Of a stretch of 64,000 nt of DNA, positions 1,383-21,419 are shown one piece after another. The translations under genes and the position numbers were made by a program. The notes beneath the pieces were generated by a model. The model ran no database searches and was not told the origin of the DNA. It was given only the letters and a program-made list of their open reading frames with translations. Where the stretch lies: NCBI GenBank assembly GCA_030539395.1, contig JAUNSC010000013.1, positions 1 through 64,000 of the forward strand, given 5' to 3'. How positions within the stretch are numbered: the first letter of the stretch is position 1; each line of letters starts with the position of its first letter. The stretch comes from Eubacteriales bacterium (GTDB taxonomy: Bacteria > Bacillota > Clostridia > Lachnospirales > Lachnospiraceae).

Positions 1383-2618
1383 ATGGAAAAAACAAATAAT
1401 AAAGGAGCGGTATTTTATGAAAATGGCACATGGAATTTTATAACGAAAATAGTTAATCGCACGAACTATACCATCGAGTATGAAAAAAGGAGCGGTTTTT
1501 CTTCCGTTCAGGAAGCAGAACAGGCACAGGCGGAGGAAAATGAGCGGTATCAAAATCAGATTGCGAGGGTAAAAAGTCTGACGAATATGAGGTATACATT
1601 TTTTGAATACTTAGATTACTGGTATCAAAACATATACCTTCCCAACTCCGATAGCTCTATTAAAATGTGCTATTGTTGGACAATTTACAAAATAATCTTA
1701 CCCAAAGCACCCAGGGATATTTTAATAGGCATGGTAACTTCCGACTATCTGAATGAAATTTTAGAAAGCTGCGAAGATTACTGTAAAAGTGCTGGCCCTA
1801 TGGTCAACAAGGTGTTCAACGTAGCATTAAAGGACGCCATGGATGATGATTACCTTCTAAATAATCCATTAACGGGTATGAAGAAGTATTATTGGGATAT
1901 CCCGGCAATGATAATCTACTCCAAAGAGCAGATAAAAACTTTACTTCAAGCAGCTTATGAGTATCACTCTATTTATTTAGAAGTTCTGCTCGCATTATTT
2001 GCCGGATTGCGAAAAGGTGAAATTATGGGACTAAAATATTCCGATTTCGATCCGGAAAAGCAGACGGTTAAGGTAGAACGTCAGATTACCAGAGATTATG
2101 AACTTATTGTAAAAAATGATACAACTTACAAAATACTTACTTCAAAGCAATCACTTAAGCCGCCCAAATCATTATGTAGTTATCGAACATTGCGTATACA
2201 TAAAATTATTTTTCAGGAATTAGAAATCCGGAGAAAAGAAAATATGCAGTTGTTTGAAAATCTTGGCAAAGAAAATCAAGAGTGGAAAGAGTACATTTGT
2301 ATTGGACCAAAAGGAAACATCAAAGGTGACTCTACCTGCAATGCCGCTTTGGAACGGATATGTGAGAGAAATGCTCTTCCAAGAGTCTCTATGCATGATT
2401 TAAGGCATATATTTGCTACGATTTTACTTGAACAGGGTATGCCATTAGAAGAAATTTCCAAAGTGATGGGACACAAAAGCACTGCGACCACTTTTGAAGT
2501 TTATTGCGGTATTATTGCGGCGAAGGAAAAAATTTCAGCATTGATTGACTCTTCTTTTGACCCCATCTATGCAGTTGCCAACTCCATGGAAGGAGGCCAC
2601 ACATATGAAGATGATTGA
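1383..2618 (+). CDS. Tyrosine recombinase (integrase) 1 of tandem pair
   Basis: Site-specific DNA strand exchange enzyme, 411 aa, the usual length for element integrases. In order: an AP2-like arm-binding region (about 5-60), a SAM-like core-binding domain (about 70-165) and a catalytic domain (about 180-395). The catalytic set is complete: Arg210 in AGLRKGE, a box II lysine near 254-262, His338 and Arg341 in HDLRH, His364 in MGHKS and the nucleophile Tyr374 in FEVYCG. ATG 1383 has AGGAGG 8 bases upstream. Its last 14 bases overlap the second recombinase gene, so the two are made together. Presumed to integrate and excise the element. Confidence 0.93.
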   Translation: MEKTNNKGAVFYENGTWNFITKIVNRTNYTIEYEKRSGFSSVQEAEQAQAEENERYQNQIARVKSLTNMRYTFFEYLDYWYQNIYLPNSDSSIKMCYCWTIYKIILPKAPRDILIGMVTSDYLNEILESCEDYCKSAGPMVNKVFNVALKDAMDDDYLLNNPLTGMKKYYWDIPAMIIYSKEQIKTLLQAAYEYHSIYLEVLLALFAGLRKGEIMGLKYSDFDPEKQTVKVERQITRDYELIVKNDTTYKILTSKQSLKPPKSLCSYRTLRIHKIIFQELEIRRKENMQLFENLGKENQEWKEYICIGPKGNIKGDSTCNAALERICERNALPRVSMHDLRHIFATILLEQGMPLEEISKVMGHKSTATTFEVYCGIIAAKEKISALIDSSFDPIYAVANSMEGGHTYEDD

Positions 2619-3954
2619 AAAACCTGTTATCAAAGAAAGTCTGCAATACGGAGCTATTATTTCATGGAAGTTCAGAGATACCATTACACCTGTCAGGAAA
2701 AAGTTTGCATATCGCTTTCTACTGACATTTTCCAATGGGATGGAATATCCCATGCAAAAAGGGGGATATCATACCAAGACAGAAGCGTTAAAAGCAAAAG
2801 AATTTACAATTACAGAACTGCATTCAAAAAAATTTGTTCCTTTTGAATACACGCTCAAAGAATTTTTTGACTTTTGGCTCTATTATTATATGAGCGATGT
2901 AGAGAAGATTTCTTACAATACATTTTGTAATTACCGAAATATAATCTATAACTACATCTTAAAGATATGGGATCCAAACAAAAAGATCGTCGATATTGAA
3001 CGAAATGATATTAATAAAATTTTGAATTCCATTGAAAAAAAAGGAATTTTAAAGTCAGCGTATACTGTTTTAAGAAGTTCTTTTTCTTATGCAAAGAGCC
3101 ATCAAATTACACGAAGTAACCCTGCAATCACTGCCATTCGCATGAAGAAAAAAGCAGTAAGGAAGGCATATCATCAAGCCATGAGAGACGGTACCCTAAC
3201 ATATGAAGAAAAACAGAATCCGATTCTCTCTATTCCACAGATATCATTGCTTTTGCTGACGTGCAAAAACACAAAGCCAGAAATGTATATACCATTGCTC
3301 TTATCTTTAACAACAGGTTTAAGAATATCTGAAGTAATTGCAATTAAATTTTCTGATATAGATTGGTGGGAAGGGGAATTGCACATCAGACGGCAGCTGG
3401 GAAGAACCCTTTCAAATGACGGAGCCGATGAAGAACGTTTATGTACACAGGAAGTAAAAACAAAATCCCGTTCAGGAAATCGAACTATTCCTTTGGGAAA
3501 CTTCATAATAGACGAATTGATTGTGGCACGTCACAAATATGAAGCAATGCAGAAATCCAATCCTGATTTTCAGGATTTGGATTTCGTATGTTTTAAAGAA
3601 AATGGCCTGCCATATAACAGAAGCAGCTTCGGAAAACCTTTCAAAAAACTTCTGGCTGAATGTAATCTGCCTGATCTGCGCTGGCATGACCTCCGCCACA
3701 CCTATGCAACCGTGTTAAAAGAAAATGATATTAGCTTAAAAGCGATTTCTTCATGTATGGGGCATAATGGTACAAAAGTTACAGAGGAGGTGTATATTAA
3801 TATCCCGAAAGAAACTGTATATGAGTGTGAAAAACAAATAGCTGCATTTATAGTAGACATTCTTCCCCGGACAAATCTTACACTGGATATTCCTATTCCC
3901 GAAAAAGATTTGCTTGAATTCCTTCCAGCAAAAGTTTACAATATGGTGGGTTAA
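2605..3954 (+). CDS. Tyrosine recombinase (integrase) 2 of tandem pair
   Basis: A second, clearly different tyrosine recombinase, 449 aa. ATG 2605 is the true start: AGGAGG at 2591-2596 is 8 bases upstream, inside the end of integrase 1. It has an arm-binding region (about 10-75), a core-binding domain (about 82-185) and a catalytic domain with Arg240 in TGLRISE, Lys285 or Lys287 in VKTKSRS, His361 and Arg364 in HDLRH, His387 in MGHNG and Tyr397 in VYINI. All key residues are present, so it is not a decayed copy. About 30 extra residues follow the usual C-terminal helix. Two intact, co-expressed recombinases suggest that both are needed, or that two elements have been nested. Confidence 0.92.
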   Translation: MKMIEKPVIKESLQYGAIISWKFRDTITPVRKKFAYRFLLTFSNGMEYPMQKGGYHTKTEALKAKEFTITELHSKKFVPFEYTLKEFFDFWLYYYMSDVEKISYNTFCNYRNIIYNYILKIWDPNKKIVDIERNDINKILNSIEKKGILKSAYTVLRSSFSYAKSHQITRSNPAITAIRMKKKAVRKAYHQAMRDGTLTYEEKQNPILSIPQISLLLLTCKNTKPEMYIPLLLSLTTGLRISEVIAIKFSDIDWWEGELHIRRQLGRTLSNDGADEERLCTQEVKTKSRSGNRTIPLGNFIIDELIVARHKYEAMQKSNPDFQDLDFVCFKENGLPYNRSSFGKPFKKLLAECNLPDLRWHDLRHTYATVLKENDISLKAISSCMGHNGTKVTEEVYINIPKETVYECEKQIAAFIVDILPRTNLTLDIPIPEKDLLEFLPAKVYNMVG

Positions 3955-20120: not shown

Positions 20121-20217
20121 ATCTTTTTCTTGACAATAGTAAAAGAGATATGTTATGTTTAATTTGCTCCATCAATCTATACGACAAACCATAGTTTTTC
20201 CAATAGATTATTGTCAA
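20121..20217 (+). promoter_or_regulatory. Promoter and inverted repeats upstream of the Xer recombinase gene
   Basis: TTGACA at 20130-20135 with TATGTT at 20154-20159 (18-base spacing) is a likely promoter. The -35 is flanked by imperfect inverted arms ATCTTTTTC (20121-20129) and AAAAGAGAT (20141-20149). TTGACAATA (20130-20138) is repeated inverted as TATTGTCAA at 20209-20217. These arms could bind the recombinase or a regulator. Confidence 0.5.
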
Positions 20218-20238
20218 AAGAAAGGAATAAACACAAAT

Positions 20239-21297
20239 ATGGACAAAAATCAGCTTACATACCATGAACAGGTTAAAATTGATAATACCTTGCGTCTAAG
20301 AGAACTTTTAAAATCAATGCCGCCTTTTGTCAAAGATTATTTTCGGGCAATTGAGCCAACAACATCCACACGTACACGAATTTCCTACGCATATGATATC
20401 CGCGTTTTTTTTCAGTTTTTATTAGATGAAAATCCGGCATTTAGAAATAAATCTATGGATGATTTTACTGTAGATGTATTAGATCAGCTAAAGCCGGTTG
20501 ATATTGAAGAATATCTGGAATATCTGAAAGTTTACCAGTCAAATGATAATTTGAAAACAAACGGTGAACGAGCTTTAAAACGCAAAATGGTTGCTCTCAG
20601 AGGCTTTTACGCATATTATTTTAAACGGGAATTAATTAAAACAAATCCCACTGTCCTTGTAGATATGCCCAAGATCCATGACAAGGCAATTATACGCCTT
20701 GATGCGGATGAAACAGCCTCTCTGTTGGATTATATTGAGCATTGCGGGGCTTCTTTATCCGGACAGAAAAAAATATACTGGGAAAAGACAAAAGTCCGTG
20801 ATCTGGCCATTGTAACGCTTTTGCTGGGCACTGGAATCCGTGTTTCCGAGTGTGTGGGACTGGATATCAAGGATATAGATTTTAAAAATAACGGGATTAA
20901 GGTTGTCCGAAAAGGCGGAAATGAAATGGTTGTATATTTTGGTGATGAAGTTGAAAAAGCCCTTATAAATTATCTTGAACAAAGAAATGGGATCACAGCC
21001 CTGGCCGGTCATGAAAATGCTTTATTTCTATCTACCCAGAGAAAACGTATCGGGGTTCAGGCAGTGGAAAATCTGGTAAAAAAATATGCAAGTCAAATTA
21101 CAACCACCAAAAAAATTACTCCGCACAAATTACGGAGTACTTACGGAACAAGCCTTTATCAGGAAACAAACGACATATATCTTGTGGCGGATGTCCTGGG
21201 TCATAAAGATGTAAATACAACGAAAAAACATTACGCTGCCATGGATGATCAGAGAAGGCGCATGGCTGCCACTGCTGTCCGACTGCGCGAAGAATAA
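20239..21297 (+). CDS. Stand-alone Xer-type tyrosine recombinase
   Basis: A 352-aa recombinase of XerC/XerD/XerS type with an N-terminal SAM-like core-binding domain (about 22-140; TTSTRTRISYAYDIRVFF) and a C-terminal catalytic domain. Complete active site: Arg201 in GTGIRVSE, Lys225 in VRKGG, His296 and Arg299 in PHKLRS, His322 in LGHKD and nucleophile Tyr332 in KHYAAMD. It lacks the AP2-like arm domain of the element integrases at 1-4 kb and is not near any excisionase or cargo gene, so a chromosomal role is likely. ATG 20239 gives the family-like MDKN start; the upstream ATG 20155 would lie in the promoter. A dif-like palindrome begins 5 bases after its stop. Confidence 0.88.
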   Translation: MDKNQLTYHEQVKIDNTLRLRELLKSMPPFVKDYFRAIEPTTSTRTRISYAYDIRVFFQFLLDENPAFRNKSMDDFTVDVLDQLKPVDIEEYLEYLKVYQSNDNLKTNGERALKRKMVALRGFYAYYFKRELIKTNPTVLVDMPKIHDKAIIRLDADETASLLDYIEHCGASLSGQKKIYWEKTKVRDLAIVTLLLGTGIRVSECVGLDIKDIDFKNNGIKVVRKGGNEMVVYFGDEVEKALINYLEQRNGITALAGHENALFLSTQRKRIGVQAVENLVKKYASQITTTKKITPHKLRSTYGTSLYQETNDIYLVADVLGHKDVNTTKKHYAAMDDQRRRMAATAVRLREE

Positions 21298-21301
21298 TTA
21301 T

Positions 21302-21328
21302 ATTTTACATAATATAGTTATGTATACT
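21302..21328. other. Candidate dif-like recombination site beside the Xer gene
   Basis: ATTTTACATAA (21302-21312), spacer TATAG (21313-21317), TTATGTATACT (21318-21328). The left half and the start of the spacer match the XerD half-site of known dif sites almost base for base, and TACATAA/TTATGTA are perfect inverted arms. The spacer is 5 bases instead of the usual 6 and the right half is looser, so this is a candidate only. It may equally be an AT-rich palindrome without function. A second palindrome, ATATAGT (21312-21318) with ACTATAT (21326-21332), overlaps it. Confidence 0.4.
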
Positions 21329-21394: not shown

Positions 21395-21419
21395 AAAAAG
21401 CCGGAAACCCCGGCTTTTT
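21395..21419. terminator. Bidirectional terminator between the Xer gene and dtd
   Basis: AAAAAGCCGG (21395-21404) pairs perfectly with CCGGCTTTTT (21410-21419) over a 5-base loop. A-run and T-run flank it, so it works for both converging transcripts. It marks the switch from plus-strand to minus-strand genes. Confidence 0.92.

What the first reader, a model, noticed from the sequence alone, without database searches (positions are those of the whole stretch)
21302..21328. A dif-like palindrome directly after a stand-alone Xer gene at a gene-strand switch
Five bases after the Xer stop, ATTTTACATAA-TATAG-TTATGTATACT resembles known chromosome dimer-resolution sites: the XerD half and start of the spacer match closely, though the spacer is 5 instead of 6 bases and the right half is looser. 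Single-recombinase systems such as XerS/difSL and XerH/difH keep the site beside the gene. From 4.3 to 21.3 kb nearly all genes are plus strand, and from 21.4 to 64 kb all are minus, which is what a replication terminus would produce. If true, this is a one-recombinase chromosome resolution system in Lachnospiraceae at the terminus.
Basis: partly seen in the sequence, partly recalled or inferred. Interest (0 to 1): 0.75.

Follow-up and report, generated by a model that had tools for sequence, protein, structure and literature searches.

The report
One-recombinase chromosome terminus module
At the point where chromosome replication ends, this gut bacterium carries one recombinase gene with its probable target site just in front of it, a compact kit for separating joined daughter chromosomes that is shared widely in its bacterial order, while the palindrome first noticed behind the gene looks like a second, different kind of site.

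Summary
The palindrome at 21302-21328 exists as written, and similar ones recur near the terminus of relatives, but it is probably not the dif site of this Xer gene. The better candidate lies upstream of the gene, window 20175-20208, ATCTATACGACAAA-CCATAG-TTTTTCCAATAGAT. It is the only match in this genome; 53 of 78 genomes (own included) have it, 50 at one place. Of 80 named loci 66 have it, always upstream, median 93.5 bp from the gene. It marks the GC-skew switch: in two genomes where site and gene are about 52 kb apart, skew turns 26 and 9 bp from the site and not at the gene. The Xer gene is near-universal in the order (73 of 78), closest to XerS but below its cut-off (219.5 vs 267 bits); no XerC was found (strict cut-off). 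So a one-recombinase system at the terminus is supported, with the site misplaced by 1.1 kb. The downstream palindrome goes with a separate solitary XerD gene (34 of 70 with it, 2 of 50 without; not significant once relatedness is corrected). Filamentous prophages abut the upstream site.

The parts
20175..20208 (+). dif-type site (called difS here): arms 20175-20188 and 20195-20208, 6-bp spacer CCATAG 20189-20194
   Evidence: Covariance model R1 48.5 bits, only match at E<=0.001 in the own genome; same layout upstream of the Xer gene in 66 of 80 named loci; such sites mark the GC-skew switch. Arms complementary at 11 of 14.
20239..21297 (+). Xer gene, 352-aa tyrosine recombinase, XerS-like
   Evidence: Pfam PF00589 9e-35; NCBIfam XerS 219.5 bits, cut-off 267; R201, K225, H296, R299, H322 and Y332 invariant in 15 aligned orthologues. 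The 380-aa ORF from 20155 would run through the site; the protein from 20239 is what aligns with orthologues (query begun there).
20130..20159 (+). promoter-like TTGACA-N18-TATGTT just before the site (weak)
   Evidence: pattern match only; the site would then lie in the leader of xer (inference)
21302..21328 (.).
   Evidence: goes with a solitary XerD gene elsewhere in the genome (G000:C64:18682-19545)
21395..21419 (.). perfect 10-bp inverted repeat AAAAAGCCGG/CCGGCTTTTT, probable terminator between converging genes
   Evidence: function inferred
21088..21088 (.). maximum of cumulative G-C in the window (replication terminus by skew)

Best explanation
Window 20175-21297 is a one-recombinase chromosome dimer resolution module: a 34-bp site (14-bp arms, 6-bp spacer) followed 30 bp later by the gene of the recombinase that acts on it. 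It sits where the two replication arms meet. Proposed working: the XerS-like protein binds both arms of two site copies brought together at the division septum, cleaves with Tyr332 either side of the 6-bp spacer and exchanges strands, turning a chromosome dimer into two monomers; the asymmetric spacer and arms set the direction. Shown here: the site, its conservation, mostly single copy, upstream linkage, position on the skew switch, a recombinase with the usual catalytic residues, and that no XerC was found. Inferred: binding, cleavage, dimer resolution, and any dependence on FtsK. The palindrome at 21302-21328 is a separate element, best read as a binding or recombination site of a solitary XerD homologue encoded elsewhere.
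For: 73 of 78 genomes (own included) hold the orthologue. Site by covariance model in 53 of 78, at one place in 50 of 53, on the Xer contig in 41, within 2 kb in 30 (the tool says its strict filters lose weak matches). In 80 named loci (78 not used for the model): 66 with the site at E<=1, 64 at <=1e-3, 66 of 66 upstream. Control: 600 kb in 30 stretches away from the terminus of three single-contig genomes gave one weak match (26.7 bits); each of the three termini gave one strong match (40.9-47.9 bits). Skew + before and - after the gene in 44 of 48 loci; cumulative maximum within 2 kb of the site in 34 of 42. Ten sites over 5 kb from the gene or on another contig were examined: 8 lie within 1.3 kb of the skew maximum, four within 125 bp (G058 26 bp, G076 9 bp, G184 125 bp, G020 1 bp), and the gene in G058 and G076 shows no switch. 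XerS genes of two Streptococcus plasmids have a site of like layout just upstream, 24 and 21 of 34 bases identical to the window site; for the first, 0 of 20000 shuffles did as well.
Against: 25 of 78 genomes gave no site at the threshold, and 21 of these 25 have the gene. G174 shows no skew switch at its site, G176 is unclear, and the second site of G058 (C2:4802) is not at a switch. In 4 of 48 loci the gene is not at the switch. In the 42 named loci where gene and site are close, the skew maximum is no nearer to the site (median 1237 bp) than to the gene start (1074 bp), so only the far-lying sites tell them apart. 37 of 78 genomes, this one included, also hold a XerD homologue that could share the work. 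The XerC cut-off is strict, passed by 2 of 14 control genomes, and the own genome is a draft (93.94% complete). No biochemistry; FtsK not examined; no structure prediction.
Confidence: 0.9

Rival explanations
1. The downstream palindrome 21302-21328 is the true dif of this Xer gene, and the upstream repeat is a regulatory operator.
For: Palindrome near the stop in 7 of 8 same-genus loci; XerD-box arms; terminus location.
Against: Found at <=2 mismatches in only 12 of 78 and 24 of 50 genomes (a chosen set) although the Xer gene is in 73 of 78; 2-4 copies in some genomes; goes with XerD rather than with this gene. The upstream site marks the skew switch where gene and site separate.
Confidence: 0.04
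2. The palindrome is the site of the solitary XerD homologue and serves something other than routine dimer resolution, such as unloading SMC complexes at the terminus, as described for XerD of Bacillus subtilis.
For: Arms equal the XerD box (recalled consensus); 34 of 70 genomes with XerD hold it against 2 of 50 without; 14 of 17 close matches lie on the Xer contig; 1-4 copies. XerD as SMC unloader is told in passages of PMC8242196, PMC9733580 and PMC13342612.
Against: The association rests on related genomes: over independent pairs that differ in XerD the palindrome goes the same way in about 2.6 and the other way in 0.1 of 9, median p 0.25. 36 XerD-bearing genomes lack it at this threshold, and G040 and G048 have it without XerD. 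No binding data.
Confidence: 0.4
3. The palindrome is a second symmetric dif at which XerD alone recombines, a back-up dimer resolution system.
For: XerD-box arms on both sides, 16-bp arm-centre spacing close to dif, XerD catalytic residues complete by eye.
Against: Spacer 5 bp, not 6; copies about 50-560 bp apart in some genomes would delete or invert DNA.
Confidence: 0.25
4. The palindrome is only an A+T-rich transcription terminator or operator.
For: It can form a hairpin behind the stop; in L018 it is followed by a T run; an inverted repeat as good arises in about 1 of 10 shuffled gaps; at up to 3 mismatches the pattern is no commoner than its reversed control over 78 genomes (46 vs 51 places, counted).
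Against: Letters, not only pairing, are conserved across genera, also where it is kilobases from any Xer stop; at up to 2 mismatches the reversed control hit once in 50 genomes against 24 genomes with the pattern.
Confidence: 0.15

Closest known systems
XerS/difSL of streptococci and lactococci
   Same: One recombinase of about 356 aa with its site beside the gene at the terminus; on plasmid pSsal-NU10 the XerS-linked site shares 24 of 34 bases with the window site and lies just upstream of the gene.
   Different: Class Clostridia instead of Lactobacillales; about 34% protein identity; XerS model score below cut-off; symmetric 14-6-14 layout, whereas difSL is described as 31 bp with one arm a base longer (PMC5357621, passages).
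XerH/difH of Campylobacter and Helicobacter
   Same: Single recombinase, in most species a linked site, related consensus TGAAAAC---A-TTTTCAAA (PMC2731167, passages).
   Different: XerH appears phylogenetically unrelated to XerS according to that paper; PDB XerH (5jjv) matches the window protein only at 1.3e-10.
XerCD/dif
   Same: Terminus location, inverted repeat with 6-bp spacer, tyrosine recombinase.
   Different: No XerC over the cut-off in 78 genomes; no convincing canonical dif in about 200 kb round the terminus of three genomes: best 6 of 22 arm mismatches in G002 and G042, 5 in G071, against the recalled B. subtilis dif.
XerD-mediated SMC unloading at the terminus (Karaboja et al. 2021, seen only through citing passages)
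   Same: A XerD homologue and XerD-box sites near the terminus.
   Different: Here a solitary XerD with symmetric XerD/XerD palindromes; function untested.

Membership tests
XerS (NCBIfam NF003462) | score over the curated cut-off of 267 bits | tested here: not met
   window protein 219.5 bits, the best family for it; all 15 aligned orthologues match the model, best E 1.5e-67; streptococcal XerS scores 436
XerS/difSL-type one-recombinase system | recombinase gene with linked site at the terminus | tested here: met
XerS/difSL-type one-recombinase system | no XerC/XerD pair in the genome | tested here: met
   0 of 78 over the XerC cut-off; all 38 XerC-model places at E<=1e-70 are also XerD-model places; XerD-type gene in 37 of 78. 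In the own genome only that gene and the window gene match the XerD model at E<=1e-40. Caveat: only 2 of 14 control genomes pass the XerC cut-off, and the genome is a draft.
XerS/difSL-type one-recombinase system | 31-bp site with arms of unequal length | tested here: not met
   34-bp symmetric 14-6-14 layout
XerS/difSL-type one-recombinase system | FtsK-controlled recombination at the site | not testable with these tools
   needs protein and cells
tyrosine recombinase (PF00589) | R-K-H-R-H-Y catalytic set | tested here: met
   R201, K225, H296, R299, H322, Y332 invariant in 15 of 15 (which residues are catalytic is recalled)
XerCD/dif | two recombinases and an 11-6-11 XerC-box/XerD-box site | tested here: not met
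   with the XerC caveat above; the dif scan covered three relatives, not the own draft genome
XerD-binding terminus sites (SMC unloading) | XerD bound at the site and SMC removed there | not testable with these tools
   only co-occurrence with XerD tested

The most novel reading that the evidence does not exclude
In the Lachnospirales the two jobs of Xer proteins at the terminus are split between two unpaired recombinases with separate sites: the XerS-like enzyme resolves dimers at a single 34-bp site that fixes the skew switch to within tens of bases, while a dispensable solitary XerD acts at one to four symmetric XerD/XerD palindromes around it, for example to unload SMC. The dimer-resolution site is also a major docking point for filamentous and other phages that carry their own copy of it.
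Probability: 0.35. Interest if true: 0.78.

Novelty: new variant of a known kind. Interest (0 to 1): 0.6.

Why it matters
The papers I saw describe one-recombinase alternatives to XerCD for streptococci and lactococci, epsilon-proteobacteria and Archaea (PMC5357621, PMC2731167, passages), with XerS also noted in Lactobacillus helveticus (PMC3025954, passages). Here most genomes of a major order of gut bacteria carry such a module, and 25 of 118 genomes drawn from its class (own included) carry a relative of its recombinase. The site offers a near base-level marker of the terminus, a ready target for gene-removal tests, and a place where filamentous prophages of these bacteria insert. Four searches of the held library found no paper joining XerS, dif site or dimer resolution with Lachnospiraceae, or inovirus with dif site, XerC and Firmicutes. 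One search (XerS, dif, tyrosine recombinase, Clostridia) found two: PMC3025954 and PMC4876114, the latter seen in the listing only. PMC9765430, on a dimer resolution system in Legionellales, was also seen only in listings. Supplementary tables, such as the Firmicutes predictions of PMC3025954, could not be read.

Tried and rejected
Canonical dif in about 200 kb round the terminus of three single-contig genomes: best candidates 5-6 arm mismatches of 22, not convincing. BLASTN of 34-mers against phage (two queries) and plasmid records (one query): no match. Idea that the palindrome strictly co-occurs with XerD: supported in raw counts, not after correction for relatedness, and G040 and G048 hold it without a XerD match. 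Idea that each terminus has one palindrome: rejected, 1-4 copies. Idea that all palindrome matches count: rejected, at up to 3 mismatches the pattern is no commoner than its reversed control (46 vs 51 places, counted), so only <=2 mismatches were used. Tree: XerS falls with the Lachnospirales Xers apart from XerD and the integrases, with modest support (86/79) and long branches. In the viral contigs other than L183, L184 and L235 the site was not assigned to virus or host; 40 of 50 viral records searched had no PF00589 match, but the tool warns that such records may be fragments.

Full report
What was claimed.

What is in the window. The Xer gene runs 20239-21297 on the plus strand. It encodes a 352-aa tyrosine recombinase with Pfam PF00589. 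Its best NCBIfam model is XerS, 219.5 bits against a cut-off of 267. R201, K225, H296, R299, H322 and Y332 are invariant in 15 aligned orthologues. In a greedy ORF set 16 of 19 ORFs left of 21.4 kb are plus and 40 of 40 to the right are minus. The cumulative G-C curve peaks at 21088. The palindrome stands at the stated place. Alone it is what about one shuffled gap in ten would give (31 of 300).

The site that matters is in front of the gene. Printing the flanks of orthologues showed a conserved repeat that proved to lie upstream of the gene: ATCTATACGACAAA-CCATAG-TTTTTCCAATAGAT, window 20175-20208. In the 7 other same-genus loci it keeps 32-34 of 34 bases, in one inverted. A palindromic weight matrix and a plain inverted-repeat scan extended it to other genera in the form NACTATTCGNNAAA-N6-TTTNNCGAATAGTN. 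A covariance model (R1) built from 21 sites found it in 53 of 78 genomes, own included: 50 of them at one place, 41 on the contig of the Xer gene, 30 within 2 kb (the tool says that its stricter filters lose some weak matches). The other 12 lie on another contig of a draft, or the Xer gene was missing from my table (not found in G025; listed but not fetched in G064). Of the 25 genomes without a match 21 have the gene. In 80 named loci from a separate collection (two of them, L305 and L322, have the contig lengths of contigs already used for the model and I take them for the same) the site was found in 66 at E<=1 and 64 at E<=1e-3, in 66 of 66 upstream of the gene, at a median of 93.5 bp. Of the 14 loci without a hit plus L344, L371 and L377 (17 genomes), 6 gave a hit at E<=0.001 somewhere in the genome. 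As a control, 600 kb in 30 stretches away from the terminus of three single-contig genomes gave one weak match (26.7 bits, E 0.01), against one strong match at each of the three termini.

It sits on the skew switch. In single-contig relatives G002, G042 and G071 the Xer gene lies at 0.47, 0.52 and 0.52 of the circle from dnaA; sampled skew is + on one arm and - on the other, and the fine cumulative maximum is 1.2, 1.3 and 7 kb from the gene start. In G071 the site is 5.8 kb from the gene and 1.2 kb from the maximum. In G067, also one contig, the gene is at 0.38 of the circle (positions), and its skew was not sampled. In named loci with long flanks, skew is + before and - after the gene in 44 of 48, and the maximum is within 2 kb of the site in 34 of 42; there gene and site are mostly too close to tell apart (median 1237 bp to the site, 1074 bp to the gene start). 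The telling cases are sites over 5 kb from the gene or on another contig. I examined 10 of the roughly 27 that searches show. In G058 and G076 site and gene are 52-53 kb apart: the skew turns 26 bp and 9 bp from the site and does not turn within 20 kb of the gene. In G184 (Mobilitalea sibirica) the maximum is 125 bp from the site, in G066 1.3 kb, in L377 0.7 kb, in G063 221 bp from the site on C227, and in G020 1 bp from the site on C2, though with weak skew to the left there (+0.018). Against it: G174 shows no switch at its site, and G176 is unclear. So 8 of 10 fit within 1.3 kb. Of secondary sites, G058 C2:4802 is not at a switch, the weak G020 C24 site is 3.3 kb from the maximum, and the G063 C221 pair lies too close to a contig end to judge. 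The G177 site lies on a 7-kb contig and was not analysed.

One recombinase. The orthologue is in 73 of 78 genomes of the order, own included, and in 25 of 118 drawn from the class, own included, 20 of them over 400 bits. No genome of 78 has a match over the XerC cut-off, and all 38 XerC-model places at E<=1e-70 are places that the XerD model hits too. The XerC cut-off is strict: 2 of 14 control genomes pass it. In the own genome the XerD model at E<=1e-40 found two genes, the XerD homologue and the window gene, among 16 PF00589 matches. The XerD homologue, about 300 aa, is present in 37 of 78; in the own genome it is G000:C64:18682-19545, 346 bits against a cut-off of 329.6. Most of the other genomes have the XerS-like gene without it, which argues that the XerS-like gene carries the essential role (inference).

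Kinship. XerS genes on two Streptococcus megaplasmids (about 34% identity) have upstream a repeat such as ATCTATTCGGAAAACAGTTATTTGTTGAATACAC. It is identical to the window site, read on the other strand, at 24 of 34 bases (21 in the second plasmid); none of 20000 shuffles of the first did as well. Model R1 scores the first 16.9 bits, E 0.12, so the model alone would not prove kinship. The arms also resemble those printed for difSL (PMC5357621, passages) and difH (PMC2731167, passages). In a tree XerS falls with the Lachnospirales proteins, support 86/79, with long branches. I therefore call the protein XerS-like and the module difSL-type in working, not a member of XerS by the curated cut-off.

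The palindrome downstream. Its type AGTTTACATAA-N5-TTATGTAAACT follows the Xer stop in 7 of 8 same-genus loci and in L030. Over 78 genomes, matches with at most 2 mismatches number 17 in 12 genomes, 14 of them on the Xer contig; at up to 3 mismatches the pattern is no commoner than its reversed control (46 vs 51 places; my count). In the 80 named loci 21 hold it within the fetched flanks, 8 of these in 2-4 copies. Over 50 named genomes 24 hold it, and the reversed control hit once. All 24 have the XerD homologue, against 13 of the other 26; the line of 299 bits was drawn after seeing the scores, in the gap between 299 and 233. Those 50 were chosen as 21 with and 29 without a local palindrome, so frequencies there are not population values. 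Over 120 genomes with an Xer orthologue at hand: 34 of 70 with XerD, 2 of 50 without, Fisher 4e-8; over independent pairs on the tree the test has no power (median p 0.25). The two exceptions are G040 and G048. Reading: a XerD site, for SMC unloading or for recombination by XerD alone. The unloading role of XerD in B. subtilis is taken from passages in three papers; the primary paper was not held.

Phages at the site. Two viral contigs holding an exact palindrome (L183, L184) are filamentous prophages (in L183 a replication protein over the PF23343 cut-off and an ATPase matching PF05707 just below its cut-off) that end at the 34-bp site, followed by the palindrome and a host-type Xer gene. In L235 homology to host loci runs to base 1799, the site begins at 1834, and a PF05707 protein lies beyond. 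This is what elements exploiting a host Xer system look like, but a second site copy at the far prophage end was not seen. A study of Enterocloster inoviruses reports direct repeats at their ends, and a term search of its text found neither Xer nor dif site (PMC10061712, passages).

Verdict. The dimer resolution site is most likely 20175-20208.

Noticed in passing
L183:5184-5215, L184:8589-8620, L235:1834-1865: Filamentous (inovirus-like) prophages end at the dif-type site next to a host-type Xer gene, as expected of elements that use the host Xer system.
   Followed up: partly
   Followed up: partly
L387:2306-2340: Butyrivibrio proteoclasticus megaplasmid pCY360 has a Xer gene (36% identity) with a perfect 14-bp inverted repeat, 7-bp spacer, inside the annotated start of the gene and upstream of the homologous part: perhaps a plasmid version of the module.
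   Followed up: partly
window 1923-2504 and 3238-3804: Two further phage-type integrase domains (PF00589) close together at the left end of the contig, perhaps an integrated element.
   Followed up: no
G131:C77:74096, G133:C263:3952, G157:C104:66687: The same palindrome variant GTTTACATAAATCATTTCTGTAAAC occurs in three genomes (in G131 on the contig that also holds its XerD gene), so perhaps at one conserved place.
   Followed up: no
L050 (G010:C2:101200-110100): Two Xer orthologues 3.8 kb apart, and just outside this stretch two palindromes 558 bp apart near one dif-type site.
   Followed up: no
G020:C2:11641 and C24:23422: Full site at a (weak) skew switch on one contig and a weak hybrid-looking site before the Xer gene on another, perhaps the trace of an integration or rearrangement.
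   Followed up: partly
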